Source: Pseudo-nitzschia pungens (taxonomy: Eukaryota; Bacillariophyta; Bacillariophyceae; Bacillariales; Bacillariaceae). Taken from it: 64,000 bases of DNA. This document shows positions 9,061 to 38,790 of the stretch, in pieces (position 1 is the stretch's first letter; each line of letters starts with the position of its first letter). The stretch is taken from positions 6,421,001 through 6,485,000 of the forward strand of contig CM074758.1 of the NCBI GenBank assembly GCA_037355855.1, written 5' to 3'. The notes below the pieces were generated by a model. The model did not search any database. It saw only the letters and a list, made by a program, of their open reading frames with translations, and was not told the origin of the DNA. The translations under genes and the position numbers were made by a program.

Positions 9061-9321
9061 TCTTTGTGCTCCAAGTGTGAGACAAATTTTGCTCGTTTTT
9101 TAGCAAAAATTTCTGAGTTCCCCGGTGACTTTTGTGGGTGTGCTCCAGTATATTTTTTGGATCCCCAGGGACCTTTTCCTTGTCCAGACCAAGGTTACCC
9201 TTGTTGTTGCTGCTGTACCCTGTTTCCAGGATACCCCCATCTGTACATCTGCATAAAGTTCCCACTGACAGCCTACTAGCGCCCAAGCCAACACGCCTAT
9301 TCAGATGATACTAGCCCCACC

Positions 9322-17707: not shown

Positions 17708-20700
17708 GTGGCTCTTTTTGCTGAACATTGTTTGAATGAATCCAAACTCCTGCCCTGTGATCTTTTCAATCGGCGCATGAAGAATGTCTGTCCCTCAAGT
17801 TTTTCCTATCTTGCCAACAACAAGCATGAAGCTTCTGACTGCTCATGGCTTCAGCCTGGTGGCACAGGGTTTTCCATTGACCAACTGTTCAGTTCCCACA
17901 AGATTGCCCATGGGGCTGATCCTTCTGGTCTTGGAAGATGGTCCTTTGTCAAGTTTCAAGGCAGGGATGGCTACAATGTCACTATGTTTTCTGCTTACTG
18001 CCCAGTTGAAAATGATAGGGATCTTGGTTCAGTCTGGAATCAACAGTGCCGCTACTTTCAAGCAGCTGAAAATCTTTTCAGTCCCAATCCATGCATTCTT
18101 TTTCACAGGGATTTGACTGCTGCCCTTCAGGTCTGCCTGGGTGCAGGTGACCAGGTCATTGTTGGGATTGACCAGAATGCTGATGTTCGAACTGATGGCT
18201 TGTCTTTTGAGCTCAAGGCTCTTGGTTTCAGAGAGGCCATTCTTACACTTCATAGTATGTCTTCGCCTCCTGCCACTCACAACCGCAACACTACCAGAAC
18301 ACCAATTGATGCCATTTGGGTCTCTGAGAATGTTGATGTTCTCAGGGCTGGGTATTGTCCCTTTGGTGGTGTCTATGGTATGGAATCTGACCACAGAATG
18401 CTTTGGATTGAAGTCTGTAATTGCAGCCTCATGGGCAAACATTTGCCACCTCCTGTGAGCTTCTCTCATTCCAAACTCCAGTCCTCCCACCCTCATCTGC
18501 GCCACCGGTATTTCAAGCGTGTCAGGCACAGCTTTCTCCAGGCTGGGGTGTTTTCTCTCCAAGCTAAGCTGGAGCACCTCCTGGCTCAGTTTCAGTCTGG
18601 GGATATTTCTGTGCGCACTGATCTCATCACCACATATGAAGTACTCCATGAAACCTCTACCTCTCTTAGGCTCTCTGTTGAACAAAACCTCTGCCACACT
18701 AGAGCTGGTTTGGTTCCATGGTCACCAAAGCTGCAAGTCTATCGTGATACAATTGACTTTTGGCGGCGTGTTGTTAAGTTGAGACAGGGTGTGTCCACCA
18801 GTCATACTGTTTTGAAAAGGTTGGCCTGCAAGCTTTCTCTCTACAAAGGAGAACACAGTGACCTTTCCAGTGCTCTCCTCCATCTGAAACAAGCTTACAA
18901 GCAATACCGGGCAGTGAAGAAATTGGCCCCCTCATGGAGAGACTCCTTCAATCAAGGCCTGGTGGATGCACTTCTTGCTGAAGGCAAGCCTCACAACCAG
19001 ACTGCTTCCCAGATTCGTGCCAGGATGCGCAGGGAACGTCTTCAAAGAGAGCTTGGTCTTGCTGCTCGGTCTATTCGGGGACGTGTCAACAAGTCAGCAG
19101 TCTTGCGAGCTATTGCAGTTGGCCATGATGGTGTTGAACAGGTCTTGGAGTCTCAGTCTACTATGGTTCCAGCTATGGCTGAATCCAATGTCCGGCGTCA
19201 ACAGCAGTGTATTGGCACTCCTTCCATGACTCCCTCCTTCATTCAAGATTTTGGCTACCTAGGCACTGCCCAGGCTGCTACTCATGTTCTTGATGGCACA
19301 TATAATCCTCCTCCTGCCACTGACAAATACCTTTCTGAATTTCTTTCCTGTCTCAAAGTCCCTGACTCTATACTGAGTTTGCCCCCCTTTGACTATTCAG
19401 TGTGTCCAGCTGACAATGCTGCTGCCTGGAAACGCCAGAGGGAACGCACAGCAAGTGAACCTTCTTGTTTGAGTTTTGCCCACCACAAGGCATTTGCCAT
19501 GGATCCCCAGCTGAACAAGTTTGACACTCTCCTGAGATCCGTCCCATTGATTGTTGGCTTCTCTCCTTCTGCTTGGCAGGTCATCACTGATGTTGAGATC
19601 TTCAAGAAACCTGGTGAATATAGAGTGGATAAGATGAGGCTTATTCAGCTGATGTCTCCTGAGTTCCAAATCAACAACAAGATGATTGGCAGACGCATTC
19701 TTGCCCATGCTGAACGTGCCAATGCCGTGGCTGCTGATCAACATGGAAGCAGGAAACACCACAAGGCCATCAACACCTGCCTGAACAAGAAGCTCATCTG
19801 TGATGTGTTGCGGCAGAAGCGCAGATCCGGTGCTGTTGCTATGAATGATGCTAAGGGCTGTTATGATAGAATCTCTCATCCCATTGCAGGTCTCACTCTC
19901 CAGAGCTTTGGGGTTCCTGCACATGTGTGTGAAGTTCTTCTGTCTACTCTGCAACATGCTAAGCATCACATCAAAACTGGTTTTGGTCGGTCCGGCCCTG
20001 TGTATGGTGATGAACCTGTTCCTCTCAGTGGTTGTGGCCAAGGCAATGGTATTGGTCCAACTCTTTGGGCCTTGGTGTCAACAATTGTCTTCCGAATGAT
20101 GCAACAGGCTGGGCATGGTGTCCATCTTATCACTTCTTTGTCACTGCAACTGGTTTCTCTTGTGGGTTTTGCCTTTGTGGATGACACAGATTTGTTTTGT
20201 GCTGGCTCTGATTCCTCAACATCTGGTGAGGAATTGGCTGTTGACTTTCAGGCAGCTCTTGACCGATGGGCTGGTGGGATTATTGCCACTGGTGGTGCGA
20301 TTGAACCTGCCAAATCCTTCTGTTATTTGATTGATTTCAAATGGAATGGATCCGGTTGGGATTATCGCTCCATTGCTGACATGCCTGGTGACTTCTCAGT
20401 TGCTGACAAGAATGGCAATCGAGCTACCCTGGATCGTTTTGAAGTTGACCATGCTGACAAGACTCTTGGGGTTTTTATCTCCATGGATGGCAATGAGGAA
20501 GCACAGATTGCTCACATGAAGTCACAGTCTCAGTCTTTTGGCTCTCAGCTCAAGGCTTCCAAGTGTGAGAAGCGCGCATCCCTCTACACCTTCAAGTATT
20601 CTTTCATGAAGTCTGTTGAATACCCCATGCCTGTCACGCAACTTGATGAGGCCACTTGGACTAAGATAATTCACCCAGCTCTTGTTCCTGTGCTGAATAA

Positions 20701-23245
20701 AGCTGGGATGTCACGGACATTTCCCAGACATGTATTCTATGGTCCTTCCCTCTATCAAGGCTTTGGTTTCATTCATCCCTACCTCCTCCAAGAGTTCAGT
20801 CATATTGCCACCCTCTTTCAGGAATCTGTCAGGTCCTCACAAACTGGTAGGATTCTCAGGCTCACTGCTGAGTCTCTCAGGCTGGAACTTGGCATTCCTC
20901 TCCATCTTGGTGTCACCCCATATCATCCTTTTGCTTCCTACGTCACTCCTTGCTGGTACAAACATGTGTGGAAGTTTTTCTCTGTTCACCCTGTGAGCTT
21001 GTTTGAAGACTTCCCAGATCTTCCCCTGCTACGTTCCAATGACTGCTATCTCATGCAAGCCTTTGTCAACGCTGGCTTCAGAGGTGCTGACTTGTCCCTC
21101 TTGAACCACATTCGAATGTCACTCAAGGCTATTTCCCTTGCTGATGTTTGTACTCCAGATGGGAAAAGACTCTCTCCCATGGCCTTCCAGCTGACATCCT
21201 CCAATCACTTGAGGGATCATCTTGACTGGCCTAGATGTCCTCCATCTTGGCCTCCAGCAGCACAGCGCTTATGGACTAAGGCTCTTCAGACCTGTTTTCT
21301 TCCCCCCTGTCCACCCCCTGCAGCCAGGGCATTGGCTCCTTCTTTTCACCTTGGGAATTGGCTCTCTCCCCAGACAGCTTCTCTTTGGCCTTGGTTTTTG
21401 TCTCCATCCACCAACAGAATATTCTTCAAAACTTCTACTGGCTGGATCGTGAGCACCTCCCAAGGCAGGGGCAGATACAGGGTCACTTCTGAAATCCTTT
21501 CTGACAAACCAGCCTGTGCTGATGTGCTTGTCTGCCCTGTTATTTGCGGCCAAGTTGTACGCATTGTTGGGTCCTCAGCCTTTGTTTCTGAACCTCCTGA
21601 CATGGATCCTCTGGAGTACAATCCATTTGATTCTCTTCCAGACTCCCCAGTAGATGCCTTTGATGAACTCTGTGAGTCTCCGAGAGTACTTCTCCACAAA
21701 TATTCTCTACCACAGGCTGGCTGTCAGCCCCTTGTTGATGCTATCCAGAGTGGTACTGCCAGTGCTGTATGTGATGGTTCATTTGATCCGGACCTTCTCA
21801 GAGGAACTTCCGCATTCATTCTGTCACCCAATACCTCCACCAAGAATGCTTCATTGTTCCTCACTGGCTGTAATTTTGTCAGTGGATCCCCTGAGGACCA
21901 ATCATCCTATAGGAGTGAGCTGGCAGGCATCCTTGGGGTTCTCACCTGTTGCACTGCTCTGGTGAGTCTTTTTGATATTGCTTCTGGCTCTATCACCATT
22001 GCTCTGGATGGTGACACAGCTCTCAAACAGGCTGAGGGATCATGGCCATTGGTTATTTCCCAGAAGTCTTTTGATTATGTTTATGTCATCAGAAACATGA
22101 TTTCTGCCCTGCCAATCTCTGTGCACTTTCGGTGGGTTCAGGGCCATCAAGCTGGATTCTTTCTTGATTGGTGGGCCCTTCGCAATCATCAGGTTGACAG
22201 CATGGCAAAGGCCTTTCTCTCTGTCCATAGAGCTTCTGCCCATCACTATCCCAGACTTGTGTTTGAGCCTTGGGCATTTTCTCTCAATGGATGCAAGTGT
22301 TCAAGGTTTGATCAGAATGCTTTGCATGTTGCTATTTCTGGTCCTCCTCTTCTTAAATATTGGCAGACCCACCATGACATCCCCATTCCACAACCTGTTC
22401 TGAGTTCCATCCATTGGTGTGCCCATCTGTCTGCCTTCAAGCGTCTACCTCCTGGCATGCAAAGGTGGTTTGTCAAGTTTGCTTCTGGATGCATTGGTGT
22501 TGGCAACCAACTACTTCACTACCAGTATCAGGATCACTCCAGGTGTCCCTTGTGTGATGCAGACAACGAGAAGGTTTCTCATGTGCTCTCCTGCAAGGAT
22601 ACTGGGGCTGTCACGCATAGTGTGTCTGCCTTCACGGGACCACTGCAGAAGAGGCTTGAAGCTGAACAAACTGCTCCATCATTGGCTGTTGCCATTGTGG
22701 ATCTCCTCACCAGAGTTCGGAAGGGCCAGAGAATTTATCCATCATCCTACTCACTTGCAATTGCTTCTGCTGTCAGGGCACAGAGGACTATTGGTTGGCA
22801 CAACTGGCTTCTTGGTAGGTGGTCTCCTCGCTGGTACCAAATCCAGGCTGACTACTACTCCCACATTGGAAGCAAGCGCTCTCCCAAACGTTGGGCTACA
22901 GCTATCATCCATCAGTTCTTTCTTACCTCCTGGGATCTTTGGACTTATAGGAATGAACGACTCCATGGTCCTGGGGGTACCCTTGATGCTGAACAACACC
23001 AATCTCTTGATGCTTCCATCTCCTCTGAATTGGCCATTGGTGCAGCCGGTGCACTTCCCCAGTCACACTCCCTTTTACAAACCCCTTTCCAAGTCCTACA
23101 AGGTTACACCCTGACTGCCAAGAGGCAGTGGCTTGCAACCATTCACCTTGCCAGGAAGCAGTATGCAGCGCCTGTCCAACCTGAGCAGCCATACCAACGA
23201 GAGGCTGCTCTCCTCAGAGCCTGGCTTACTGGACCTCAGGGTTGA
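17706..23245 (+). CDS. LINE ORF2 polyprotein: endonuclease, reverse transcriptase, RNase H, zinc knuckle (N-terminally truncated)
   Basis: About 1,845 codons are open without a stop. The first about 100 residues of ORF2 (see A2) are missing; no native ATG starts it. Domains, numbered from 17708: endonuclease residues 1-235 (AEHCLN Glu6, GIDQNAD, SDHRM Asp228/His229). Reverse transcriptase spans about 500-900, with GCGQGNGIGPTLW and FVDD (Asp825-826). RNase H spans about 1350-1500, with Asp1356 in CDGSF, Glu1404 in YRSELAG, Asp1434 in LDGDTAL and WVQGHQ. A knuckle C-x2-C-x8-H-x3-C lies at 1613-1629. It should nick DNA and reverse-transcribe LINE RNA at the nick. APE plus RNase H fits the I/Tad-like LINE groups. 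The loss of the start makes activity from this locus doubtful. Confidence 0.9.
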
Positions 23246-23546
23246 TTACACTTTGTACTTTGGTTTTGTCTTATGTTCCTGCTACTCATCCTGTCATTTA
23301 CCTTTTGATACTGGATCTTATCCCACTATCTTCATTCCCATCTCACTTTCTCTCAAGTCCCTATTTTGTGGGACTTGCTTGTCTTTTTCCCTGCTTGATG
23401 TTCAAGGTTTGTTTGAAAATTTGTCGTTCTGCCACTTGGGGTCCTGACTCTCTGATGGAGGCGACGTTAAAGTCTGGTTACAGACTGAGTAATTTAGTTT
23501 CACCTTTGGTGATTAAAGTTCTTTAAATACGTATATTAATATTAAT
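23246..23546 (+). promoter_or_regulatory. LINE A 3' UTR with two terminal hairpins and TTA-type tail
   Basis: After the ORF2 stop there are about 300 bases ending in a short AT repeat (ATATTAATATTAATAA) rather than poly(A). Two hairpins lie near the end: AGTCTG-GTTA-CAGACT at 23471-23486 and TCACC-TTT-GGTGA at 23500-23512. Both recur in every A 3' end here (29163-, 31010-) and, with changed bases, in B1-B3. Such 3' structures are where some LINE reverse transcriptases bind; that role here is inference. Confidence 0.7.
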
Positions 23547-23888: not shown

Positions 23889-23908
23889 ATCGATATCGAT
23901 ATCGATAA
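23889..23908. repeat. TSD of B1 (left)
   Basis: The 20-base ATCGATATCGATATCGATAA is repeated exactly at 25946-25965 after the B1 tail. The target itself is a simple ATCGAT repeat. Confidence 0.9.
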
Positions 23909-25945
23909 CAATTTGCGCATCGCGCATTTTGTCCGACGTTCCGATGTTCCAGTACTAAAAATACGTAGATTTCTACACAACTTTACCATGCGATATCTCG
24001 CTCCCTTTTACACCACCAATCACAACCCCAGGACCTACATGTATTAACCGAGACCTGCGCTCTTTGTTTCTGCTATTGGTTCAGTTGCTGGCTGCTTCTT
24101 TTGGTTGATTTGGTTGCCAATTCACCACTCGGCTGATCGATCAGCAGCAACAACCAAAACAAAACCGACACCTAATTTTCTACAGCACCTCCAGTACCGA
24201 TTCTACAGCGATTCGAAAATACTTCTAATACTGTTGCCGTCTTACTGTTGCCGTCTGTACTGCTTCGATCTGTTTCCAAGCTCCACCCTCAAGGCCCTTA
24301 AGTATATATTATACTTAATGTTCTACATTGTTTCCAAGCTTCCTAAGTGATTTCCACTTAACGTTCTACATTCTTCAAGGTTCCTTGCTAAGTCCCCTAA
24401 GTCTTTTCAAGGTGTAGTTCACGAACAGCCCCTTCCACTGTAGGTATATTTCTACAAGAAATTCCAGCTGTCATCTGTTTTCAAGTCCATTGCCCTGCTG
24501 GACCATATGTGTTTTCGCTTATGGTCCTACTGTTTTCTGACCCAAGCCCCAAAGCCGCTTAGTACAGTTTGCTTAAGGCTCCACCACCTACATAACCCTC
24601 TCAGGTGTACGGTATAATTGTCATCTGTTTTCAAGTCTACTGCCCTGCTGGATCATAAGTGTTTTCGCTTATGGTCCTACTGTTTCCTGACCCAAGCCCC
24701 AAAGCCGCTAATTACAGTTCGCTTAAGGCTCTCCTACCTACATAACCCTCTCAGGTGCACACTTCAACTGTCATCTGTTATCAAGTCTACTGCCCTGCTG
24801 GACCATAAGTGTTTTTGCTTAAGGTCCTATTGTTTTTTACCCAAGCCCCAAAGCCGCTAAGTACAGTTTGCTTAAGGCTCTCATACCTACATATACCTCT
24901 CAGATGCATTCTTCAACTGTCATCTGTTTTCAAGTCTACTGCCCTGCTGGACCATAAGTGTTTTCGCTTAAGGTCCTACTGTTTTTCTGACCCAAGCCCC
25001 AAAGCCGCTAAGTACAGTAAAGTACAGTTCGCTTAAGGCTCCACCATCTACATATACCTCTCAGATGCACACTTCAACTGTCATCTGTTTTCAAGTCTAC
25101 TGCCCTGCCGGACCATAAGTGATATTTCCTTATGTCCACCTGTTTTTTTGACCCAAGCCCCAAAGTCGCTAAGTATTCTTTACTTAATGCACCACCACCA
25201 TTATATACCCCTCCAGTTCACAGTACAGCTGAGACCTGTTTTCAAGCCTACAGCCCTGATGGTCCATAAGTGTTATCACTTAGAGCCACTGTTTCCAAGC
25301 TACTACGGGAGAGCAAGTTCAAGTTCTAACAGAAGGCCAGCTGTTACGAATTTGAATTTGGTAGTAGGCTCCACTGCCTCTACGTGGCTACTACTAAGTT
25401 CGAACAGGAGGACAGCTGTTCCGAATTTGGTAGTAGGCTCTGCACTTCATGTACCATACAGTGGTAAGGAATGTGTTCGGGGCTGACTACTCGCATTACT
25501 GATGCTGCAGTCCAGCATTTAGAGAGGAGTTTTGCTTTTGTACGCTGACCACTTGCATTACTGATACTATGTATCTGAGGAAGGGTTTTGCTTGTGTCGA
25601 CTGACAACTAGCATTACTGATGCTTTACAGCAGCATTCCAGGGACAGTTTTGCTTGTGTCTTTCCCTTTCACGTTCTTGTTACCCCGTCTCCTGTACGCT
25701 TTGCAACAGCAGTGTCTGTTGTGCTCTGGACTGGTTTGTTTTTTTTCCTGTTTCTTACCAAGGTTCGTTTGCAAAATAGCCGTATTTACAACCTGGGGCC
25801 TATTCCCCATGGTTGAGGCGGCGCGTCGTTCTACGACTTGGGGTCCTGACTCTTCGATTGAGGCGACGATAAAGTCTGGTTACAGACTGAGTAGCTTTTA
25901 ACCACCTTCGGTGGATTTTCCTACTTAAATAAGTATATTATTATT
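23909..25945 (+). mobile_element. B1: non-coding LINE-derived element with TSD
   Basis: This 2,037-bp element begins CAATTTGCGCATCGCGCATTTTGTCCGACGTTCC-like, the same 5' end as the A LINEs. It ends with the LINE-type 3' module: AGTCTG-GTTA-CAGACT at 25873-25888, CCACC-TTC-GGTGG at 25902-25914, and a TTA-repeat tail. Between them are five to six about 150-bp repeats (24470-25270), paired CAGCTGTTACGAATTTG blocks (25290-25460) and repeated TGCTGCA..CAGCATT blocks (25480-25660). No ORF over 120 codons or conserved domain exists, so it must borrow reverse transcriptase, probably from a LINE that reads this 3' end. Confidence 0.85.
24470..25270. repeat. 150-bp tandem repeats with hairpins in B1
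   Basis: The word TCATCTGTT recurs at about 24471, 24621, 24771, 24920 and 25081, a period of about 150 bp. Each unit holds an inverted repeat of the type GGACCATAAG / CTTATGGTCC around a loop with TTTT, followed by CCAAGCCCCAAAGCCGCTAAGT. Confidence 0.85.
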
Positions 25946-26240
25946 ATCGATATCGATATCGATAAGGGTACAGACGCGAAACATAATAATCGAATCGAAT
26001 CATATATCGATATCAAAAAAGGGTACCACAGCAGCAATAACAAAGGCAACCTGGTTCCGGACAAACAAATAGTCCACAGGGAGCTCCACAAATAATAGAG
26101 CAATCCCACAAAATCCATATTCAAAACCCATAGAGGTGCTCTGGAGTTACAGAAATTCACAACTCCAATCGACTGCTGCAAATACACCCAAACAAAAGAC
26201 CGGATAAAGTATATGGCATTTCTCGAAATACAAAATAACA
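25946..26240. other. H internal remnant between B1 and B2, with an antisense LINE-leader-like stretch
   Basis: 25946-25965 is the right B1 TSD and 26220-26240 the left B2 TSD (21 bp, begins TTCTCGAAATAC). In between, about 26020-26195 reads as the reverse complement of A LINE leader sequence (compare 2345-2510). It shares TAGAGGTGCTCTGGAGTTAC and GGGTACNNCAGCAGCAA. No intact protein is encoded. Confidence 0.55.
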
Positions 26241-28340
26241 CAATTTGCGCGACGCGCATTTTGTCCGACGTTCCGATGTTCCAGTACTAAAAATACGTAG
26301 ATTTCTACACAACTTTACCATGCGATATCTCGCTCCCTTCTACACCCCCAATCACAACCCCAGGACCTACATGTATTAACCAAGACCTGCGCTCTTCGTT
26401 TCTGCTATCGGTTCAGTTGCTGGATGCTTCCTTTCGTTGAGTTTGTTGCCAATTCACTGCTCGACCGAGGGATCAGCAGCAGCACCAAAACCAAGATCGA
26501 CACATAATTTTCTACAGCACTTCCAGTACAGACTCTACAGCAATTCACCACTCTTTTTCGATGTACGGTACTGCTTCGATCTGTTCCCAAGCTCCAACCA
26601 AGGCCCTTACGTATATCTTGCTATACTTAATGTTCTACACTGTTTCCAAGCTGCTTAAGTGATTCTCACTTAAAGTTCTTCCACTGTAGGAATATTTCTA
26701 CACGAAATTCCAGATGTCATCTGTTTCCAAGTCTAATGCCCTGCTGGTACATAAGTGTTTTCGCTTATGGTCCTGATGTTTTCTGACCCAAGCCCAAAAG
26801 CCGCTAAGTACAGTTCACTTAAGGCTCTACCATCTACATATACCTCTCAGGTGTACAGTATAAATGTCATCTGTTTCCAAGTCTACTGCCCTGCTGGACC
26901 ATAAGTGTTTTCACTTATGGTCCTACTGTTTCTTGACCCAAGCCCCAAAGCCGCTAAGTACAGTTTGCTTAAGGCTCCACCACCTACATAACCCTCTCAG
27001 GTGTACTGTATAAATGTCATCTGTTTCCAAGTCTTCTGCCCTGATGGACCCTAAGTGTTTTCGCTTATGGTCCTACTGTTTCCTGACCCAAGCCCTAAAG
27101 CCACTAAGTACAGTTTGCTTAAGGCTCCCCTACCTACATATACCTCTCAGATGCATTCTTCAACTGTCATCTGTTTTCAAGTCTACTGCCCTGATGGACC
27201 ATAAGTGTTTTCGCTTATGGTCCTACTGTCTCCTTACCCAAGCCCCAAAGCCGCTAAGTACAGCTTGCTTAAGGCTCTCCTACCTACATATACCTCTCAG
27301 ATGCACACTTCAACTGTCATCTGTTTTCAAGTCTACTGCCCTGCTGGACCATAAGTGTTCTCACTTAAGGTCCTACTATTTCCTGACCCAAGCCCCAAAG
27401 CCGCTAAGTACAGCTTGCTTAAGGCTCTCCTACCTACATAACCCTCTCAGATGCACACTTCAACTGTCATCTGTTTTCAAGTCTACTGCCCTGATAGTCC
27501 ATAATTGTTTTTGATTATGGACCTACTGTTTTTATGACCCAAGCCCCAAAGCTGCTAAGTACATGTTACTTAACGCACCACCACCTACATATACCCCTCC
27601 AGTTCACAGTACAGCAGAGACCTGTTTTCAAGCCTACAGCCCTGATGGTCCATAAGTGTTTTCACTTAAAGGCCCTGTTTCCAAGCTACTACGGGAGAGC
27701 AAGTTCAAGTTCGAACAGAAGGCCAGCTGTTACGAATTTGAATTTGGTAGTAGGCTCCACCGCCTCTACGTGTCTCCTACTACGAAGTTCGAACAGAAGG
27801 ACAGCTGTTACGAATTTGGTAGTAGGCTCCGTACTATATGTACCATACAGTGGTTACGGGAATGTGTTTGGGGATGACTACTCGCATTACTGGTGATGCT
27901 GCAATCCAGCATTCAGAGAGGAGTTTTGCTTTTGTACGCTGACCACTAGCATTACAGATACCATGTATCTAGTCAGGGTTTTGCTTGTGTCAGCTGACCA
28001 CTAGCATTACGGATGCTGCACACCAGCATTGGAGGGACAGTTTTGCTTGTGTCTTTCCCTTTCACGTTCTTGTTACCCCGTTTCCTGTACGCTTTGCAAC
28101 AGCAGTGTCTGTTGTGCTCTGGACTGGTTCGTTTTTTTCCTGTTTCTTACCAAGGTTCGTTTGCAAAATAGCCGTCCTTACAACCTGGGGCCTATTCCCC
28201 ATGGTTGAGGCGGCGCGTCGTTCTACAACTTGGGGCCTAACCTCTCTTCGATTGAGGCGACGATAAAGTCTGGTTACAGACTGAGTAGCTTTTAACCACC
28301 TTCGGTGGATTTTCCTACTTAAATAAGTATATTATTATTA
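26241..28340 (+). mobile_element. B2: non-coding LINE-derived element with TSD
   Basis: This 2,100-bp element has the same ends and order as B1: 5' CAATTTGCG..., 150-bp hairpin repeats (about 26715-27600, six units), CAGCTGTTACGAATTTG blocks, GCATTAC repeats, the twin 3' hairpins and a TTA tail. It is flanked by a 21-bp exact TSD (26220-26240 and 28341-28361). One repeat has a perfect 12-bp stem, GGACCATAAGTG / CACTTATGGTCC, with a TTTT loop (26896-26923). The longest open frame (166 codons at 27014) is just the repeat and is not conserved as protein. Confidence 0.88.
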
Positions 28341-28828
28341 TTCTCGAAATACAAAATAACACCCGAACTAACAATGCGTCCCCTCTCTGCTTTACACATA
28401 CAATCGCAGATACGGCAAGCAAACATCCAACGCAGCTCGGCTTTTCACCTACCTTAAACTCCTATTATTACAGGAGGTGTTTTTATGCCTAAGAGCAATC
28501 GATTTCAAATCAATTGATTTCAATTTTAAATCAGCTCCACTACCCCGAGAGGTACATCACAGTTGGGGGAGGAAAAGAATTTTCTTCGACTCTTTTTCTA
28601 TTTTTACCATGTCTTTATGACCCTTCTCGAATACAAGAAACAAATCTGAAGAACCTTCTTCAATCCCAGTTCGATCGACATTACCATATATCTTCCGAAT
28701 ATCTCAAAGGGCATATATCATCTTCAACCGGTTCTCCAAACAAGCATATCTCTTTTCATCGATACTACTCAACTCCGAACCTATTGTATTGAACTACATG
28801 CAAACTTCACCTAATCATTGGGGAACTA
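28341..28828 (+). other. H 3' internal sequence, no recognised gene
   Basis: 28341-28361 is the right TSD of B2. The rest lies between B2 and the H 3' LTR, ending GGGGAACTA just before the LTR. This is the same position as the GAGGCACTA tract that precedes the LTRs of E, F and J (a polypurine-tract-like site). A 92-codon frame (28514-28792) has no features I recognise. Confidence 0.45.
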
Positions 28829-29149
28829 TGTTACGGGCTGACGTAGGTACCCCTACAAGAGGCTCTAAATGATTATTGAATCCCGCATATATTCCAATAT
28901 ATATGGTATTCATGTACATATACTGAATATTCAACGTACAAGAATACACATACAATTCAAACAAAGATTCCCATGACTCGACGAACATTATTATTGTTCG
29001 ATCGTTCATTCATTCCATACTCAAGAAATCATTCCCATTTCGTAAAGTATTCATCCATTCTCTTTATAACACAATTTATTAACCTTCCATCTTTAAAATA
29101 CCTCTATCCCGTATTACTCCATCTAATTCTACTCTAGACCGTAACACAG
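28829..29149 (+). repeat. 3' LTR of H (321 bp)
   Basis: It starts TGTTACGGGC and ends CTAGACCGTAACA. This gives TG...CA termini with an 8-base inverted end (TGTTACGG / CCGTAACA). The end matches the J LTR end and the start is related to the J LTR start (TGTGACGGGC). The preceding purine-rich tract supports a 3' LTR. No matching 5-bp flank is visible because the left LTR is outside the window. Confidence 0.65.
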
Positions 29150-29162
29150 GCCCCGCATAATC

Positions 29163-31009
29163 AATAATAATAATATACGTATTTAAATAACTTTAATCAC
29201 CAAAGGTGATACTAAATTTCTCAGTCTATATCCAGACTTTAACGTTGCCTCCATCAGAGAGTCAGGACCCCAAGTGGTAGAACGACAAATTTTCAAACAA
29301 ACCTTGAACATCAGACAGGGAAAGAGACAAAATAAGTCCCACAAAATAGGGACTTGAGAGAAAGTGAGATGGGAATGTAGATAGTGGGAGAAGACCCAGT
29401 ATCAAAAGGGATGGGACAGGATGAGAAGCAGGAACAGAAGACAAAACCAAGGGACAAAGTGGACTCAACCCTAAGGTCCAGTAAGCCAGGCTCGTAGGAG
29501 AGCAGCCTCTCGTTGGTATGGCTGCACCAGGGTTGCAGGTGCCGCATACTGCTTCCTGGCAAGGTGGATGGTTGCAAGCCACTGCCGCTTGGCAGTCAGG
29601 GTGTAACCTTGTAGGACTTGGAAAGGGGTTTGTAAAAGGGAGTGTGACTGGGGGAGTGCACCAGCTGCACCAATTGCCAATTCAGAGGAAATGGAAGCAT
29701 CAAGAGATTGGTGTTGTTCAGCAGCAGGGGCGCCCCCAGAACCATGGAGTCGTTCATTCCGGTAAGTCCAAAGATCCCAGCAGGTGAGAAAGAACTGATG
29801 GATGATAGCTGTAGCCCAATGTCTGGGGGAGCGCTTGCTTCCAATGTGGGAGTAGTAGTCAGCCTGGATTTGATACCACCTACCAAGGAGCCAGTTGTGC
29901 CAACCAATTGTCCTCTGTGCCCTGACAGCCGAGGCAATTGCAGGGGAGTCGGATGATGGATAAATGTTCTGGCCCTTCCGAACCCTGGTGAGAAGATCCA
30001 CAATGGCAGCAACTAAGGAGGGATCGGTCTGCTCAACCTCAAGCCTCTTCTGCAGGGGTCCTGTGAAGGCAGACACACTGTGTGTGACAGCCCCAGGATC
30101 CTTGCAGGAGAGCACATGAGAAACCTTCTCGTTGTCTGCATCACACAAGGGACACCTGGAGTGATCCTGATGCTTGTAGTGGAGTAGTTGGTTGCCAACA
30201 CCAATGCAGCCAGAAGCAAATTTGACAAACCACCTTTGCATGCCAGAAGGGAGACGTTTGAAGGCAGACTGATGGGCACACCAATGGATGGAACTCAAAA
30301 CAGGTTGTGGAATGGGGATATCATGGTGGGTCTGCCAGTATTTAAGAAGAGGAGGGACAGAAATGGCAACATGCAAAGCATTCTGATCAAACCTTGAGCA
30401 CTTGCAGCCATTGAGGGAAAATGCCCAGGGCTCACACACAAGTTGGGGGTAGTGATGGGCAGAAGCTCTATGGACAGAGAGAAATGCCTTGGCCATGCCA
30501 TCAACCTGGTGATTGTGAAGGGCCCACCAATCAAGAAAGAATCCAGCTTGATGGCCCTGAACCCACTGAAAGTGCACAGAAATTGGCAGGGCAGAAATCA
30601 TGTTTCTGATGACATAAACATAATCAAAAGACTTCTGGGAAATAACCAATGGCCAAGATCCTTGAGCCTGTTTGAGAGCTGTGTCACCATCTAGGGCAAT
30701 GGTGATAGAGCCAGAAGCAATATCAAAAAGACTCACCAGAGCAGTGCAACAGGTGAGAACCCCAATGATTCCTGCCAGTTCACTCCTATAGGATGACTGA
30801 TCCTCAGGGGATCCACTGACAAAATTACAGCCAGTGAGGAACAATGAAGCAGACTTGGTGGAGGTATTGGGTGACAGGATGAAAGCAGAAGTTCCTCTGA
30901 GAAGGTCCGGATCAAATGAACCATCACATACAGCACTGGCATTACCACTCTGAATAGCATCGACAATGTGCTGACAGCCAGCCTGTGGTAGGGAATATTT
31001 GTGGAGAAT
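29163..31009 (-). mobile_element. C1: 5'-truncated A-family LINE 3' end
   Basis: The minus strand carries ORF2 from the RNase H domain to the stop (29471-31009), then the 3' UTR with both hairpin sites and a TTA tail at 29163. The 5' end is truncated at CTCCACAAATATTCCC and abuts the tail of C2 with nothing between. This gives a head-to-tail pair. Confidence 0.85.
29471..31009 (-). pseudogene. LINE ORF2 C-terminal part in C1 (RNase H and knuckle)
   Basis: About 513 codons are open to the truncation point. They contain AVCDGSFDPD, SYRSELAGI, ALDGDTAL and WVQGHQ of RNase H, and CPLCDADNEKVSHVLSC. It is close to the ORF2 at 17706-23245 but lacks a few residues (WLLGRW then YQIQ, omitting SPRW). 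It has no endonuclease, reverse transcriptase or start codon, so it is a dead 5'-truncated copy. Confidence 0.85.
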
Positions 31010-32267
31010 AATAATAATAATATACGTATTTAAATAACTTTAATCACCAAAGGTGAAACTAAATTACTCAGTCTGTATCCAGACTTTAACGTCGCCTCCA
31101 TCATAGAGTCAGGACCCCAAGTGGCAGAACGACAAATTTTCAAACAAACCTTGAACATCAAGCAGGGAAAAAGACAAGCAAGTCCCACAAAATAGGGACT
31201 TGAGAGAAAGTGAAATGGGAATGAAGATATTGGGATAGGATCCAGTATCAAAAGGGATGGGACAGGATAAGAAGCAGGAACAGAAGACAAAACCAAGGTA
31301 CAAAGTGTAATCAACCCTGAGGTCCAGTGAGCCAGGCTCTGAGAAGAGCAGCCTCTTGTTGGTATGGCTGCACTGGTGGGTCAGGCGCTGCATACTGTTT
31401 CCTTGCAAGGTGGATGGTTGCAAGCCACTGCCGCTTGGCAGTCAGGGTGTAACCTTGTAGGACGTGGAAAGGGGTTTGTAACAGGGAGTGTGACTGGGGA
31501 AGTGCACCAGCTGCACCAATTGCCAATTCTGAGGTGATGGAAGCATCAAGAGATTGGTGTTGTTCAGCATCAAGGGTACCCCCAGGACCATGGAGTCGTT
31601 CATTCCTATAAGTCCAAAGATCCCAGGAGGTAAGAAAGAACTGATGGATGATAGCTGTAGCCCAACGTTTGGGAGAGCGCTTGCTTCCAACGTGGGAGTA
31701 GTAGTCAGCCTGGATGTGGTACCAGCGAGGGGACCACCTACCAAGGAGCCAGTTGTGCCAACCAATAGTCCTCTGTGCCCTGACAGCAGAAGCAATTGCA
31801 AGTGAGTAGGATGATGGATAAATCCTCTGACCCTTCCGAACTCTGGTGAGAAGATCCACAATGGCAGCCACCAATGATGGATCAGTTTGTTCAACTTCAA
31901 GCCTCTTCTGCAGTGGTCCCTTGAAAGCTGACACACTATGCGTGACAGCCCCAGTATCCTTGCAGGAGAGCACATGAGAAACCTTCTCGTTGTCTGCATC
32001 ACACAAGGGACACCTGGAGTGATCCTGATACTGGTAGTGGAGTAGTTGGTTGCCAACACCAATGCATCCAGAAGCAAACTTGACAAACCACCTTTGCATG
32101 CCAGCAGTATTTGTGGAGAAGTACTCTTGGAGACTCACAGAGTGCATCAAAGGCATCTGCAGGGGAGTCTGGAAGAGAATCAAATGGATTGTACTCCAGA
32201 GGATCCATGTCAGGAGGTGCAGAAACAAAGGCAGAGGACCCAACCACGCGTACAACTTGGCCAAAGC
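31010..32267 (-). mobile_element. C2: A-family LINE 3' end with an internal deletion
   Basis: Minus strand: the 3' UTR and TTA tail begin at 31010 and ORF2 runs to about 32267. Near 32107 ORF2 jumps from LLHKY to GMQRWFVKF, dropping about 250 codons that include most of RNase H. At its 5' side it is joined to a short LTR (32268-32447). Confidence 0.8.
31311..32267 (-). pseudogene. LINE ORF2 C-terminal remnant in C2
   Basis: The frame from the stop at 31311 is open through CPLCDADNEKVSHVLSC to the deletion junction. Upstream of the junction the true ORF2 frame (GQVVRVVGSSAF...DPLEYNPFD) lies in another phase, so the deletion also shifted the frame. The RNase H catalytic core is missing and there is no start codon, so no enzyme can come from it. 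What survives is the junction-proximal linker and the C-terminal zinc knuckle region. Confidence 0.75.
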
Positions 32268-32447
32268 TGCCATACCCCAGGTCTACTAGTGATTGGAAAG
32301 TAGTAGTGATATGCAAATTGTGAGCTCTAGTGGTTAGTCTATCTGCTACAGTTCTAAGCGCTCTCTGGATCGGCGATTCTATCGGCTCGCCGATTGTTTT
32401 TATCCTTATCCTTAATCCAGTCCCGTGTATACTCGCGACTGTATCCA
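32268..32447 (-). repeat. Solo short LTR-like repeat (D type)
   Basis: This is one of four related copies (also 53668-53853 +, 61349-61517 - and 61692-61858 -). All share an end GGGTATGGCA or GGGTTTGGCA, an inner AGAGCTCACAATTTGC-type block and a start near TGNACNGGATACAGTC. Two of the others follow the end of a D-type pol. This one separates C2 from C3 with no internal element sequence, so it is read as a solo LTR. A tRNA-derived SINE is the main alternative. Confidence 0.5.
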
Positions 32448-33178
32448 TGTCAGGAGGTTCAGAGACAAAGGTAGAGGACCCACCCAAGGGAACAACTTGG
32501 CCTTGGATCACAGGGGAGACAAGCACATCAGCACAGGCTGGTTTATCAGAAAGGTTTTCAGAAGTGAACCTGTATCTGCCCCTGCCTTGGGAGGTGCCCA
32601 CAATCCAACCAGTAGAAGATTTGGAGAATATTCTGTTGGTAGATGGAGACAAAAACCAAGGCCAAAGAGAAGCTGTCTGGGTAGAGAGCTAATGCCCAAG
32701 GTGAAAAGAAGGAGCCAGTGCCCTGGCTGCAGGGGTTGGGCAGGAGGGAAGAAAACATGTTCGGGACATCCTTGCTTTATTCAGCACTGGAACAAGAGCT
32801 GGGGTAAGAATCTTTGTCCAGGTAGCCTCATCAAGTTGGGTAACAGGCATGGGATATTCAACAGACTTCATGAAAGAATACTTGAAGGTGTAGAGGGAAG
32901 CTCTCTTCTCACACTTGGAAGCCTTGAGTTGAGACCCAAAAGACTGAGACTGGGACTGCATGTGAGCAATCTGGGCTTCCTCATTGCCATCCATGGAGAT
33001 AAAAACCCCAAGGGTCTTGTCAGCATGGTCAACCTCAAACCGATCCAGGATAGCACGATTGCCATGCTTGTCAGCAACAGAGAAGTCACCAGGCATGTCA
33101 GCAATGGAGCGATAGTCCCAACCAGAGCCCGTCCATTTGAAATCAATCAAATAACAGAATGATTTGGCAGGTTCAATA
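32448..33178 (-). pseudogene. C3: LINE ORF2 middle part with deletion and nonsense codon
   Basis: The minus strand encodes IEPAKSFCYLIDFKW to MSRT and then jumps to CFLPSCPTPAARALAP, losing about 200 codons. A Trp codon of LGNWLSP has become TAG. The sequence resumes exactly where the ORF2 in 42835-45659 stops, so the two are halves of one LINE copy separated by the 9.65-kb insertion. The short overlap with C2 (GQVVxxxGSS...DMD, about 60 bases) differs at several sites, suggesting C2 is another copy. Confidence 0.75.
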
Positions 33179-33289
33179 CGTCTGATAACTGATTTTAGAC
33201 GTGGGTCGAAAATTTTTGTGCCGGGTCCTTTTGGGGTCAAATATTTGACCAGATCCTTGTCCCTGGCTTAATTTTTTCAGTCCCGTACC

Positions 33290-33660
33290 ATATATATTTT
33301 TGAGGCAATGCCAATTATTTTTAGAGGCAACCCCCATCAATTTTTGAGGCACCGTTCATCAATTTTTGAGGCACCGTTCATCAATTTTTGAGGCACCGTT
33401 CATCATTTTTAGACGCAACGCCCATCATTTCAAGAGGCAACGCCCATCAATTTTCGAGGCAACGCCCATCATTTTTAGAGGCAACGCCCATCGTTTCAAG
33501 AGGCAACGCCCATCATTTTTAGAGGCAACGCCCATCATTTCAAGAGGCAACGCCCATCATTTTTAGAGGCAACGCCCATCATTTCAAGAGGCAACGCCCA
33601 TCAGTTTTAGACGCAACGCCCATAATTTCTAGAGGCAACGCCCGCCCATTATCACATGAT
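33290..33660. repeat. 22-bp minisatellite (GGCAACGCCCATC...)
   Basis: About fifteen copies of GGCAACGCCCATC followed by ATTTTTAGA or ATTTCAAGA alternate, giving a 44-bp dimer pattern in the middle. The left units are degenerate (GGCACCGTTCATCAATTTTTG). Confidence 0.85.
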
Positions 33661-33719
33661 AATAATGTTACACTATTATTGATGTTAAGAACCACTAGTA
33701 TTCTGATACTGTATTGGTA

Positions 33720-34319
33720 CAAACTGGATTTCAGTTGCCGTCGTATTGCATTTCAATTCCCATTGCATCCTATTTCAATTGCCGTCGGATTGTATTGCCG
33801 TCGCATCCTATTTCAGTTCCCCGTCGCATTGTATTATCCTATTTCAATTGCCGTCGGATTGTATTGCCGTCGCATCTTATTTCAGTTCCCCGTCGTGTTC
33901 CCGTCGCATCCTTGCATCGTATTTCAGCAGTTGCCGTCGGATTGTATTTCAGCAGTTGCCGTTGCCGTCGCATTGTATTTCAGTTCCCGTCGCATTGTAT
34001 TTCAGTTGCGTTTAGTGTATTCTTCCTTACGAGGAGCAAGCAGGCAATTACATGCATGGTTAGAATTGAACTCCATGATCAATACCCCCGATCCTGATGC
34101 AGTTCACTCACCGTCGCATTGTATTTCAGCAGTTGCCGTCGGATTGTATTTCAGCAGTTGCCGTTGCCGTCGCATCGTATTCCAGTTCCCGTCCAATCGT
34201 ATTCAGTTCCCGTTGCATCGTATTTCAGTTGCTGCGTTCAGTATGTTCTTCCCTACCAGGAGCAAGCAGGCAATTAAATGCATGGTTAGAAGTGAACTCC
34301 ATGATCGATACCCCTGGCC
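33720..34319. repeat. GCCGTCGxATTGTATTTCAG repeats in a higher-order array
   Basis: Short units such as TTGCCGTCGGATTGTATTTCAG occur more than fifteen times. A larger unit containing GGAGCAAGCAGGCAATTA and CTCCATGAT recurs at about 34040, 34260 and 36500. The third copy is on the far side of B3, so B3 inserted into this array. Confidence 0.8.
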
Positions 34320-34338
34320 AATCTTGATGCAGTTCACT
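34320..34338. repeat. TSD of B3 (left)
   Basis: AATCTTGATGCAGTTCACT is repeated exactly at 36366-36384. Both copies lie in the same satellite. Confidence 0.85.
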
Positions 34339-36090
34339 AATAATAATAATAATAATATACTTATTTAAGTAGGAAAATCCACCGAAGGTGGTTAAAAGCT
34401 ACTCAGTCTGTAACCAGACTTTATCGTCGCCTCAATCGAAGAGAGGTTAGGCCCCAAGTTGTAGAACGACGCGCCGCCTCAACCATGGGGAATAGGCCCC
34501 AGGTTGTAAGGACGGCTATTTTGCAAACAAACCTTGGTAAGAAACAGGAAAAAAACGAACCAGTCCAGAGCACAACAGACACAGCGGTTGCAAAGCGTAC
34601 AGGAGACGGGGTAACAAGAACGTGAAAGGGAAAACACAAGCAAAACTGTCCCTTGAATGCCGCTGTACAGCATCAGTAATGCTTGGAGTGGTCAGCTGAC
34701 ACAAGCAAAACCCGTCCTCAGATACATAGTATCAGTAATGCAAGTGGTCAGCTGACGCAAGCGAAACTGGTCTCAGCATGCTGTGTTGCAGCATCAGTAA
34801 TGCGAGTGCCCCAAACACATTCCTTACCACTGTATGGTACATATAGTACGGAGCCTACTACCAAATTCGTAACAGCTGTCCTCCTGTTCGAACTTCGTAG
34901 TAGCACTTCAGAAACACGTAGAGGCAGTGGAGCCTACTACCAAATTCAAATTCGTAACAGCTGGCCTTCTGTTCGAATGAATTTGCTCTCCCGTAGTAGC
35001 TTGGAAACAGGGGCTCTAAGTGATAACACTTATGGACCATCAGGGCTGTAGGCTTGAAAACAGGTCTCAGCTGTACTGTGAACTGGAGGGGTATATGTAG
35101 GTGGTGGAGCGTTAAGTAACATGTACTTAGCGACTTTGGGGCTTGGGTCAGGAAAAACAGTAGGGCCATAAAAGAAAACAATTATGGTCCAGCAGGGCAG
35201 TAGACTTGAAAACAGATGACAGTTGAAGTGTGCATCTGAGAGGGTTATGTAGGTAGGAGAGCCTTAAGCAAGCTGTACTTAGCGGCTTTGGGGCTTGGGT
35301 CAGAAAACAGTAGGACCTTAAGCGAAAACACTTAGGGTCCAGCAGGGCAGTAGACTTGAAAACAGATGACAGTTGAAGTGTGCATCTGAGAGGTATATGT
35401 AGATGGTGGAGCCTTAAGCGAACTGTACTTAGCGGCTTTGGGGCTTGGATCAAGAAACAGTAGGACCATAAGCGAAAACACTTATGGTCCAGCAGGGCAG
35501 TAGACTTGAAAACAGATGACAATTATACTGTACACCTGAGAGGTATATGTAGATGGTGGAGCCTTAAGCAAACTGTACTTAGCGACTTTGGGGCTTGGGT
35601 CAGAAAACAGTAGGACCATAAGCGAAAACGCTTATGGACCAGCAGGGCAGTAGACTTGGAAACAGATGACATTTGTACTGTACACCTGAGGGGGTTATGT
35701 AGGTAGTGGAGCCATAAGCAAACTGTACTTAGCGACTTTGGGGCTTGGGTCAGAAAACAGTAGGACCATAAGCGAAAACGCTTATGGACCAGCAGGGCAA
35801 TGGACTTGAAAACAGATGACAGCTGGAATTTCTTGTAGAAAGATTCCTACAGTGGAAGGGGCTGTTCGTGAACTTCGACTTGAAAAGACTTATGAGGACT
35901 CAGCAAGGAACTTCGAAGAATGTAGAACATTAAGTGAGAATCACTTAAGCAGCTTGGAAACAGTGTAGAACCTTGAGTATAGTAAGATATATCGAAGGGC
36001 CTTCAGGGGAGCTTGGGAACAGATTGCAGATCGAACGAATTGCTGTAGAATCTGTACTGGAGTTGTGCTGTAGAAAATTATGTGTCGGTT

Positions 36091-36124
<34 letters not shown>

Positions 36125-36365
36125 GATCGATCGATCGTCCGTCGAGTGGTGAATTGGCAACCAACTCAACCAAACAAAGCATCAAGCAACTGAACAAATA
36201 GCAGAATCAAAGAGAGAGGTCGCTGTTAGTATGTGTAGGTCCTGGGGTTGTGATTGGGGGTGTAAAAGGAAGCAAGATATCGCATGGTAAAGTTGTGTAG
36301 AAATCTACGCATTTTTAGTACTGGAACATCGGAACGTCGGACAAAATGCGCGATGCGCAAATTGT
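34339..36365 (-). mobile_element. B3: non-coding LINE-derived element with TSD, minus strand
   Basis: This 2.03-kb element is a reverse-oriented copy of B1 and B2. Its 3' TTA tail starts at 34339, the CCACC-TTC-GGTGG hairpin is nearby, and GCATTAC and CAGCTGTTACGAATTTG blocks follow. The 150-bp hairpin repeats lie at about 35040-35830 and the 5' end is near 36364. A GCT/GCA-rich microsatellite (CTGCTGCTG, about 36089-36119) lies in the 5' leader, unlike B1 and B2. It is flanked by a 19-bp TSD. No coding capacity. Confidence 0.85.
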
Positions 36366-36384
36366 AATCTTGATGCAGTTCACT

Positions 36385-38479: not shown

Positions 38480-38790
38480 TTTGCTTAGTGTTTTGCTTTG
38501 CTTGCTGCTTTGCTTGCTGCTTTGCTTGCTGCTTTGCTTGCTGCTTTGCTTGCTGCTTTGCTTGCTGCTTTGCTTGCTGCTTTGCTTGCTGCTTTGCTTG
38601 CTGCTTTGCTTGCTGCTTTGCTTGCTGCTTTGCTTGCTGCTTTGCTTGCTGCTTTGCTTGCTGCTTTGCTTGCTGCTTTGCTTGCTGCTTTGCTTGCTGC
38701 TTTGCTTGCTGCTTTGCTTGCTGCTTTGCTTGCTGCTTTGCTTGCTGCTTTGCTTGCTGCTTTGCTTGCTGCTTTGCTTGCTGCTTTGTT
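38480..38790. repeat. 12-bp minisatellite (TTTGCTTGCTGC)n
   Basis: About 25 nearly perfect copies. Because 12 is a multiple of three, five long frames on both strands stay open (poly Cys-Phe-Ala-Cys, Leu-Leu-Cys, Ala-Ala-Leu-Leu or Lys-Ala-Ala-Ser). None has other support. Confidence 0.95.

What the first reader, a model, noticed from the sequence alone, without database searches (positions are those of the whole stretch)
23909..36365. A family of 2-kb non-coding retroelements that keep only LINE ends and a hairpin-repeat core
B1 (23909-25945), B2 (26241-28340) and B3 (34339-36365, minus) have the LINE A 5' terminus and an A-like 3' module. In between they hold no ORF, only 150-bp repeats and two other repeat types. 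Each copy has its own exact TSD (20, 21 and 19 bp), which proves that they move as discrete units by a LINE-like route and reach full length. Two-kilobase, ORF-free, LINE-ended elements are much larger than SINEs and keep a full 5' UTR, which is unusual and may be undescribed in this lineage.
Basis: partly seen in the sequence, partly recalled or inferred. Interest (0 to 1): 0.87.

Follow-up and report, generated by a model that had tools for sequence, protein, structure and literature searches.

The report
Protein-free 2-kb parasites of a LINE
In an alga that is likely a diatom, about 300 copies of a 2-kb jumping element with no sign of a protein-coding gene carry both ends of a LINE, and most copies checked have clean insertion marks, so they likely spread by borrowing that LINE's copying machinery.

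Summary
B1, B2 and B3 belong to a genome-wide family: by pattern count 315 B-type 3' ends and 337 B-type 5' ends in a 66.9-Mb genome with silicon-transporter genes. Of 73 full-length copies examined, 67 have exact target-site duplications of at least 15 bp, median 19. Seven frames tested show no coding signature. None of 40 newly sampled B 3' ends belongs to a LINE frame. About 500 bp of the core has no LINE match. The first 72 nt are 92-96% identical to the LINE, the next 128 nt only 70-75%. The 3' end keeps the LINE's stems and carries one stem-loop module twice. B is best read as an unusually long relative of SIDEs (RIME, NARTc, Persaeus) with an SVA-like repeat core, likely moved in trans by LINE A: a new variant of a known kind. 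Transcription, RNA structure and trans-mobilisation are inferred.

The parts
23909..25945 (+). B1, full-length non-autonomous element (2037 bp)
   Evidence: three other copies listed at 100% (rounded)
23889..23908 (+). left target-site duplication of B1 (its last A may be element base 1)
25946..25965 (+). right target-site duplication of B1
23908..23979 (+). 5' hallmark, 72 nt, 92-96% identical between B and LINE A (2-4 gaps), against 70-75% for the next 128 nt
   Evidence: 31-nt core found 643 times in the genome at up to 3 mismatches
23980..24378 (+). LINE-5'UTR-like segment
24469..25296 (+). array of five 150-bp hairpin units and a partial one, homologous to units in the LINE A 5' UTR
25293..25814 (+). 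segment without LINE match in the profile search (profile positions 1377-1895, mapped approximately), with two long stem-loops (about 25286-25461) and three shorter repeated modules (about 25480-25660)
   Evidence: sense fold of B1 1380-1850 z -4.44, 0 of 60 shuffles as low; 58 predicted pairs, none covarying
25788..25823 (+). first copy of the duplicated 3' stem-loop module
   Evidence: score 27 against a maximum of 22 in 1000 shuffles; no second module in the LINE (score 15, reached by 122 of 500 shuffles)
25833..25868 (+). second copy of the 3' stem-loop module, shared with LINE A
25871..25945 (+). conserved 3' end: AAAGTCTGGTTACAGACTGAGTA stem, CCACCTTCGGTGG hairpin, (ATT)n tail
26241..28340 (+). 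B2, full-length element (2100 bp)
26220..26240 (+). left target-site duplication of B2
28341..28361 (+). right target-site duplication of B2
34339..36365 (-). B3, full-length element (2027 bp)
36366..36384 (-). target-site duplication at the 5' side of B3
34320..34338 (-). target-site duplication at the 3' side of B3
997..3537 (+). 5' end and 5' UTR region of a LINE A copy; hairpin unit homologous to the B unit at 1563-1695
6105..9321 (+). 5' end and 5' UTR region of a second LINE A copy; hairpin unit at 6661-6790
17708..23543 (+). LINE A ORF2 (reverse transcriptase) and 3' UTR: proposed source of the mobilising enzyme

Best explanation
B is a family of about 2-kb elements with no coding signature that carries both ends of LINE A and is likely copied in trans by the LINE A enzyme, presumably through target-primed reverse transcription. 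Shown by sequence: discrete copies with TSDs, a LINE-like 5' hallmark, expanded LINE 5'-UTR hairpin units, a segment of about 500 bp of unknown origin, a 3' end with the LINE's stem sequences, and an (ATT)n tail. Inferred: the conserved 72-nt 5' hallmark would act as promoter and/or 5'-end signal, giving a full-length transcript. LINE A ORF2p would recognise the 3' stems, one module of which B carries twice, and prime at a nick with T residues. The RNA would then be copied to its 5' end. The hairpin array would protect the RNA or load it with LINE proteins, as the VNTR influences mobilisation of SVA and LAVA.
For: TSDs: 67 of 73 full-length copies have exact TSDs of at least 15 bp. They start with T in 54 of 67 and have T at position 2 in 42 of 67, as priming on an (AUU)n tail would give. 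Paralogous empty sites: where B interrupts LINE ORF2 in L055, L071, L072 and L075, the LINE coordinates overlap by 18, 19, 20 and 18 bp, equal to the TSD; L049 (19 against 21) and L068 (23 against 20) agree within alignment edges. Shared ends. Two LINE A insertions of about 11 kb, read at their ends only, have the same hallmark and tail and exact 19-bp TSDs, one of them inside a B. Possible enzyme source: 144 of 454 RT candidates were scored, all 98-100% identical, about half of them (about 75 by hand) with a 1971-aa open frame. Two 3'-end types, 519 LINE-type and 315 B-type, stand against 858 exact shared motifs. Recent spread: 57 of 69 copies have a relative within 1%. Completeness: 42 of 52 exact B 3' ends on contig C1 have their 5' end in the fetched stretch; 5' to 3' counts are 337 to 315 for B and about 306 to 519 for the LINE.
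Against: No transcript, enzyme or retrotransposition assay is available. B and LINE A differ by 9-12% with 12-18 gap columns in the last 110 nt, so trans recognition is plausible, not shown. The 5' hallmark is not the only similar stretch: B 201-460 is 78-85% identical but with 81-116 gap columns. 310 of 454 RT candidates were not scored, and diverged LINE 3' ends exist (L004:4360-4504, L024:575-719), so another LINE could be the partner. Structural support is modest: at the 3' end 2 pairs change on both sides, no more than in shuffles (422 of 500), though cell counts and score exceed all 500; in the 150-bp unit 3 such pairs, reached by 43 of 500; in the unique stem-loops none of 58. Six of 73 copies lack a TSD of 15 bp or more, and no TSD was found for four copies without a 5' end. 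The end counts use different mismatch limits, so their ratios are rough.
Confidence: 0.8

Rival explanations
1. B is mobilised by a different LINE family than LINE A, one more diverged or rarer in this assembly.
For: B and LINE A ends are only about 90% (3') and 70-96% (5') identical. 310 of 454 RT candidates were not scored. Diverged LINE 3' ends exist.
Against: The LINE-type and B-type 3' ends (519 and 315, with mismatches) come close to the 858 exact shared motifs. All 144 scored RTs are one family. The 31-nt 5' core is identical between B1-B3 and one window LINE and differs by one base in the other.
Confidence: 0.13
2. B copies are independent internal deletions of LINE copies and do not move as a family.
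For: Both ends and much of the core match LINE sequence.
Against: Copies share a segment of about 500 bp that matches no LINE piece searched and a duplicated 3' module (seen in the distinct B-type ends). 67 of 73 have own TSDs. Groups of 24, 14 and 14 of 69 copies link at 3% (the sample is partly chosen by similarity to B1).
Confidence: 0.02
3. B is a SINE: transcribed by RNA polymerase III from a small-RNA head, with only its tail LINE-derived.
For: Non-coding, LINE-like tail, high copy number.
Against: No tRNA in the window (ARAGORN) and no Rfam match to the B1 region at E up to 5. The head is LINE 5' UTR. B1 has 25 runs of four or more T, one of eight, expected to stop polymerase III (recalled). 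A- and B-box-like matches are scattered.
Confidence: 0.03
4. The repeat core is a host or satellite sequence captured by the element, and it spreads for reasons unrelated to LINE proteins.
For: The stretch of profile positions 1377-1895 has no LINE match.
Against: The 150-bp units have homologues in the LINE 5' UTR.
Confidence: 0.02

Closest known systems
[quoted passage not shown] PMC3414825, passages seen)
   Same: 5' and 3' ends of non-LTR elements without the coding middle; ends diverged with structure kept; proposed there to use the machinery of the full-length elements.
   Different: R2 SIDEs insert in rDNA and release their 5' end by an HDV-like ribozyme; none was found here by Rfam. 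B is about 2 kb, dispersed, and has an expanded repeat core.
RIME and NARTc with ingi and L1Tc (trypanosomatids; PMC4035085, passages seen)
   Same: Autonomous and non-autonomous partners share a strongly conserved 5' hallmark (Pr77, 77 nt), like the 72-nt hallmark here.
   Different: RIME and NARTc are short truncated versions screened there by a poly-A tract and 7-11 nt TSDs; B has an (ATT)n tail, about 19-bp TSDs, repeat units and a non-LINE segment. Pr77 is a promoter and ribozyme; no function is shown here.
Persaeus with its CR1 partner Zenon (Lepidoptera; PMC6740152, passages and sections 9 and 11 seen)
   Same: LINE 5' and 3' ends around a central region unlike the LINE; high copy number.
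   Different: The first Persaeus copy is 352 bp, poly-A tailed, and includes the edges of the Zenon ORF; B is about 2 kb with an array of LINE 5'-UTR hairpins.
SVA and LAVA VNTR-composite retrotransposons (hominoids; PMC4432496, passages seen; parts of the anatomy recalled)
   Same: Composite non-coding element with a central tandem-repeat domain of varying unit number, mobilised in trans by a LINE.
   Different: Their 5' domain is a hexamer repeat and Alu-like, and their 3' domains have other origins (recalled in part); in B both ends match its proposed partner LINE.
LARD/TRIM (LTR retrotransposon derivatives; recalled)
   Same: Non-coding derivative that keeps the ends needed for copying; LARDs are large.
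   Different: They keep LTRs; B has LINE-type TSDs and tail, and no LTRs were seen.

Membership tests
SIDE (short internally deleted element of a non-LTR retrotransposon) | Keeps the 5' end of a non-LTR element | tested here: met
   72-nt hallmark 92-96% identical; profile match of B to the LINE 5' UTR
SIDE (short internally deleted element of a non-LTR retrotransposon) | Keeps the 3' end of a non-LTR element | tested here: met
   88-91% identity over 100-104 aligned nt with 12-18 gap columns, and the same stems
SIDE (short internally deleted element of a non-LTR retrotransposon) | No coding capacity | tested here: met
   seven frames tested on 69 copies; third positions never the most variable, no frame open in more than 45 of 69
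SIDE (short internally deleted element of a non-LTR retrotransposon) | TSDs and tail of the partner type | tested here: met
   67 of 73 B copies with exact TSDs of at least 15 bp; two LINE insertions checked at their ends, both 19-bp TSDs
SIDE (short internally deleted element of a non-LTR retrotransposon) | Short, formed simply by internal deletion | tested here: not met
   about 2 kb; unit array expanded; about 500 bp without LINE match; duplicated 3' module
SIDE (short internally deleted element of a non-LTR retrotransposon) | Mobilised in trans by the autonomous partner | not testable with these tools
   needs expression or a retrotransposition assay
SINE | Polymerase III-transcribed small-RNA head | tested here: not met
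   no tRNA or Rfam match; LINE-type head
SVA/LAVA-type VNTR composite | Central tandem-repeat domain with varying unit number | tested here: met
   full units per copy: 5 in 51, 6 in 9, 4 in 6, 3 in 1, 2 in 2 of 69
SVA/LAVA-type VNTR composite | Alu-like 5' domain; hominoid origin | tested here: not met
   LINE 5' hallmark instead; host genome has silicon transporters
HDV-like ribozyme at the element 5' end | Match to an HDV-type ribozyme family | tested here: not met
   no Rfam match up to E 5 over window 23900-25960; an unlisted ribozyme is not excluded

The most novel reading that the evidence does not exclude
B is a protein-free RNA parasite that has out-engineered its LINE. It amplified the LINE's 5'-UTR hairpins into an array, added further stem-loops and doubled the 3' recognition module, so that LINE proteins copy it to the very 5' end far more reliably than their own 11-kb RNA. 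This would be an SVA-like element that arose independently in a diatom from LINE parts.
Probability: 0.3. Interest if true: 0.75.

Novelty: new variant of a known kind. Interest (0 to 1): 0.6.

Why it matters
LINE-derived non-autonomous elements with both ends are called rare in PMC6740152, which lists them from fruit flies, a mosquito and a trypanosome and adds moths and butterflies. A young, abundant, mostly full-length 2-kb version in a likely diatom gives a natural set of variants (unit number, duplicated 3' module, subfamilies) beside a LINE with many open copies. It makes testable which RNA parts a LINE enzyme needs, and whether repeat arrays help mobilisation as in SVA and LAVA. It also warns annotators that 2-kb repeats with LINE ends and no coding frame can be mobile elements, not decayed LINEs.

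Tried and rejected
B-type LINE as parent: I looked for LINE frames joined to B-type ends. Among 40 newly sampled exact B-type 3' ends, 36 have no LINE 3' end directly before the B piece. In four (L053, L056, L059, L069) a LINE with its own 3' end precedes a B piece that starts inside B. L053 shows B on both sides of the LINE, and L069 is a LINE insertion into B with a 19-bp TSD (B body listed). L056 and L059 look the same, but their far sides were not fetched. Three B-type 5' ends without a near 3' end were B copies broken by other sequence; other such 5' ends on C1 (for instance near 3105582 and 4178007) were not fetched. B-type 3' ends with 1-2 mismatches were not sampled, since the list showed only exact ones.

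Coding: the 166-216-aa frames and six others were tested and dropped. Known RNA families: none at gathering scores in the window and none up to E 5 in the B1 region. SINE head: none. Hallmark or 3' motif in other collections: 0 exact hits in viral contigs and 0 for the 3' motif in genome contigs; these hold viruses and prokaryotes, so this says little. 5' end: a predicted hairpin without covariation in 5 sequences; single-stretch folds were only mildly better than shuffles.

Sampling: L001-L008 came and L009-L040 were cut from its list, all chosen by similarity to B1. L041-L080 were chosen by an exact B-type 3' end in listing order (39 of them are the C1 sites not yet held, one is on C2). Of 78 5'-3' pairings, 3 duplicates were dropped and 2 false pairings before the counts on 73. 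Four nested composites were left out of the length, ORF, alignment and divergence sets, leaving 69. Structure alignments used non-redundant subsets: 18 of 141 distinct units plus 2 LINE units, 12 of 13 non-redundant 3' ends from 41 distinct (one chimeric, L024:999-1143, dropped), 9 of 34 distinct stem-loop regions.

Completeness on C1 (my tally): of 52 exact 3' ends, 42 have a 5' end in reach. Four abut other sequence without a 5' end (L042, L043, L050, L063), 4 follow a LINE insertion (L053, L056, L059, L069), 1 has no recognisable 5' end (L044) and 1 is an outer nested copy (site of L076).
Full report
What is there. B1, B2 and B3 are at the stated coordinates with exact TSDs. The window lies in a 66.9-Mb genome of 28 contigs. 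That genome has 11 silicon-transporter matches, best E 4.1e-232, and 72 chlorophyll-binding-protein matches. Among the 120 of 159 relatives listed for the LINE protein, the only one named after a eukaryote is from the diatom Cylindrotheca closterium, at 35% identity. I therefore call the host a likely diatom.

Family size. A 48-nt B-type 3' end occurs 315 times at up to 2 mismatches. A 36-nt B-type 5' end occurs 337 times at up to 3. A LINE-type 3' end occurs 519 times at up to 3, and a 23-nt stem shared by both occurs 858 times exactly. The 5' hallmark core occurs 643 times, leaving about 306 for the LINE; one window-type LINE 5' pattern alone found 63. The limits differ, so these are rough, but B has about one 5' end per 3' end and the LINE about 0.6. 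On contig C1, 42 of 52 exact B-type 3' ends have their 5' end in the fetched stretch.

Movement. Of 73 full-length copies, 67 have exact TSDs of at least 15 bp, median 19. The other six are L003, L012, L019 and L046 (none), and L025 and L066 (9 bp). The first TSD base is T in 54 of 67 and the second in 42 of 67; microhomology with the tail may contribute. Fifteen of 73 copies have LINE sequence on both sides, five have B on both sides, six have one such flank, 47 neither. In L055, L071, L072 and L075 the interrupted LINE coordinates overlap by 18, 19, 20 and 18 bp, equal to the TSD; L049 gives 19 against 21 and L068 23 against 20. This serves as a paralogous empty-site test. Two LINE A insertions of about 11 kb on C1, fetched at their ends only, have the hallmark, the (ATT)n tail and exact 19-bp TSDs; one lies inside a B, and one search lists a 1971-aa RT frame within each span. 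Fifty-seven of 69 B copies have a relative within 1%, and the largest groups linked at 3% hold 24, 14 and 14 copies, in a sample partly chosen by similarity to B1.

Anatomy. A profile of 69 copies matches the LINE 5' UTR from position 4-8 to 676-799 and again over 1033-1376, and the LINE 3' end over 1896-2018 (similar at the LINE). So the 150-bp hairpin units have LINE 5'-UTR counterparts that B multiplied; 51 of 69 copies have five full units, the others two to six. Between profile positions 1377 and 1895 (about window 25293-25814) no LINE match was reported; a pairwise alignment suggests that its last part may still be LINE-related. The first 72 nt are 92-96% identical to the LINE, the next 128 nt 70-75%, and B 201-460 is 78-85% with 81-116 gap columns, which suggests a constrained 5' signal. 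The 3' end keeps the LINE stems. B1 carries the first stem-loop module twice (25788-25823 and 25833-25868; score 27 against a maximum of 22 in 1000 shuffles), and in L044 the two modules are nearly identical by eye. The LINE has no second copy above chance (score 15, reached by 122 of 500 shuffles).

Structure. In the 3' end 97.0% of cells pair, above all 500 shuffles, but pairs changed on both sides (2) are not (422 of 500 reach it). In the 150-bp unit 94.5% pair, again above all shuffles, with 3 double-change pairs reached by 43 of 500. In the unique stem-loops a 58-pair fold has no covarying pair. The sense strand of B1 1380-1850 folds at z -4.44 (0 of 60 shuffles as low), the antisense at z -1.86; the other segments are milder: first 470 nt z -1.83, array z -2.39, 3' end z -2.87. 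RNA structure is thus likely for the 3' end and the units, predicted for the unique stem-loops.

No protein. Longest ATG frames are 77-216 aa in 69 copies, in or just behind the unit array in the copies printed. In seven frames tested on 69 copies third positions are never the most variable, and the best-kept frame (99 codons) is open in 45 of 69.

Partner. 144 of 454 RT candidates were scored; all are 98-100% identical to the window's LINE A, and about half (about 75 by hand) have a 1971-aa open frame. No LINE frame with B-type ends was seen among 40 newly sampled 3' ends (L056 and L059 not fully resolved) or behind three orphan 5' ends. LINE A is therefore the likely partner; a rarer LINE is not excluded.

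Mechanism. Shown: discrete insertion with TSDs, shared ends, close relatives at separate sites, no coding signature. Inferred: transcription from the hallmark, recognition of 3' stems by LINE A ORF2p, target-primed reverse transcription, help from the hairpin array. [quoted passage not shown]

Comparison. SIDEs are the nearest kind: R2 SIDEs (PMC3414825, passages), RIME and NARTc with the Pr77 hallmark (PMC4035085, passages), Persaeus (PMC6740152, passages and sections 9 and 11), where SIDEs are called rare. B meets the end, TSD and non-coding criteria but not 'short, simple internal deletion'. By repeat core, and by size as I recall it, it works like SVA/LAVA without being one. A Phaeodactylum repeat table (PMC5859163, passage) lists 13 putative SINEs covering 1,454 bp and, in the passage seen, no LINE row. 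The listings of my paper searches (only one search was listed in full) show no such element in a diatom.

Noticed in passing
window 13121-23544: A LINE 5' half on the minus strand (17708 to 13121) lies head to head with a LINE 3' part on the plus strand (17706-23544), resembling a 5' inversion (twin priming) or two abutting insertions.
   Followed up: no
L023 and L070: B copies with two successive 3' tails; the TSD matches the outer tail, as a template jump or tail duplication would give.
   Followed up: partly
L051 (C1:4673863-4677160) and L052 (C1:4711756-4715053): The same B copy with the same left flank on opposite strands about 38 kb apart: probably an inverted segmental duplication.
   Followed up: no
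L084 and L085: Two B copies of different subfamilies are both broken just behind the hairpin of the first 150-bp unit (about B position 620) by different sequences; the hairpin may be a breakage or insertion hot spot.
   Followed up: no
73 full-length B copies: Fifteen lie inside LINE sequence and five inside another B, and LINE copies also lie inside B (L053, L069), so nesting is frequent.
   Followed up: partly
window 7880-9058: A 15-bp minisatellite of about 78 copies in the 5' region of a LINE copy, open in several frames.
   Followed up: no
window 38494-38788: A perfect 12-bp tandem array (TGCTTTGCTTGC, 24.6 copies, 100% match).
   Followed up: no
window 54701-59618: LTR-retrotransposon frames: one with protease, RT, RNase H and integrase domains, one upstream without a Pfam match, perhaps gag.
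   Followed up: no
L004:4360-4504 and L024:575-719: Diverged LINE-type 3' ends, signs of older LINE lineages in this genome.
   Followed up: partly
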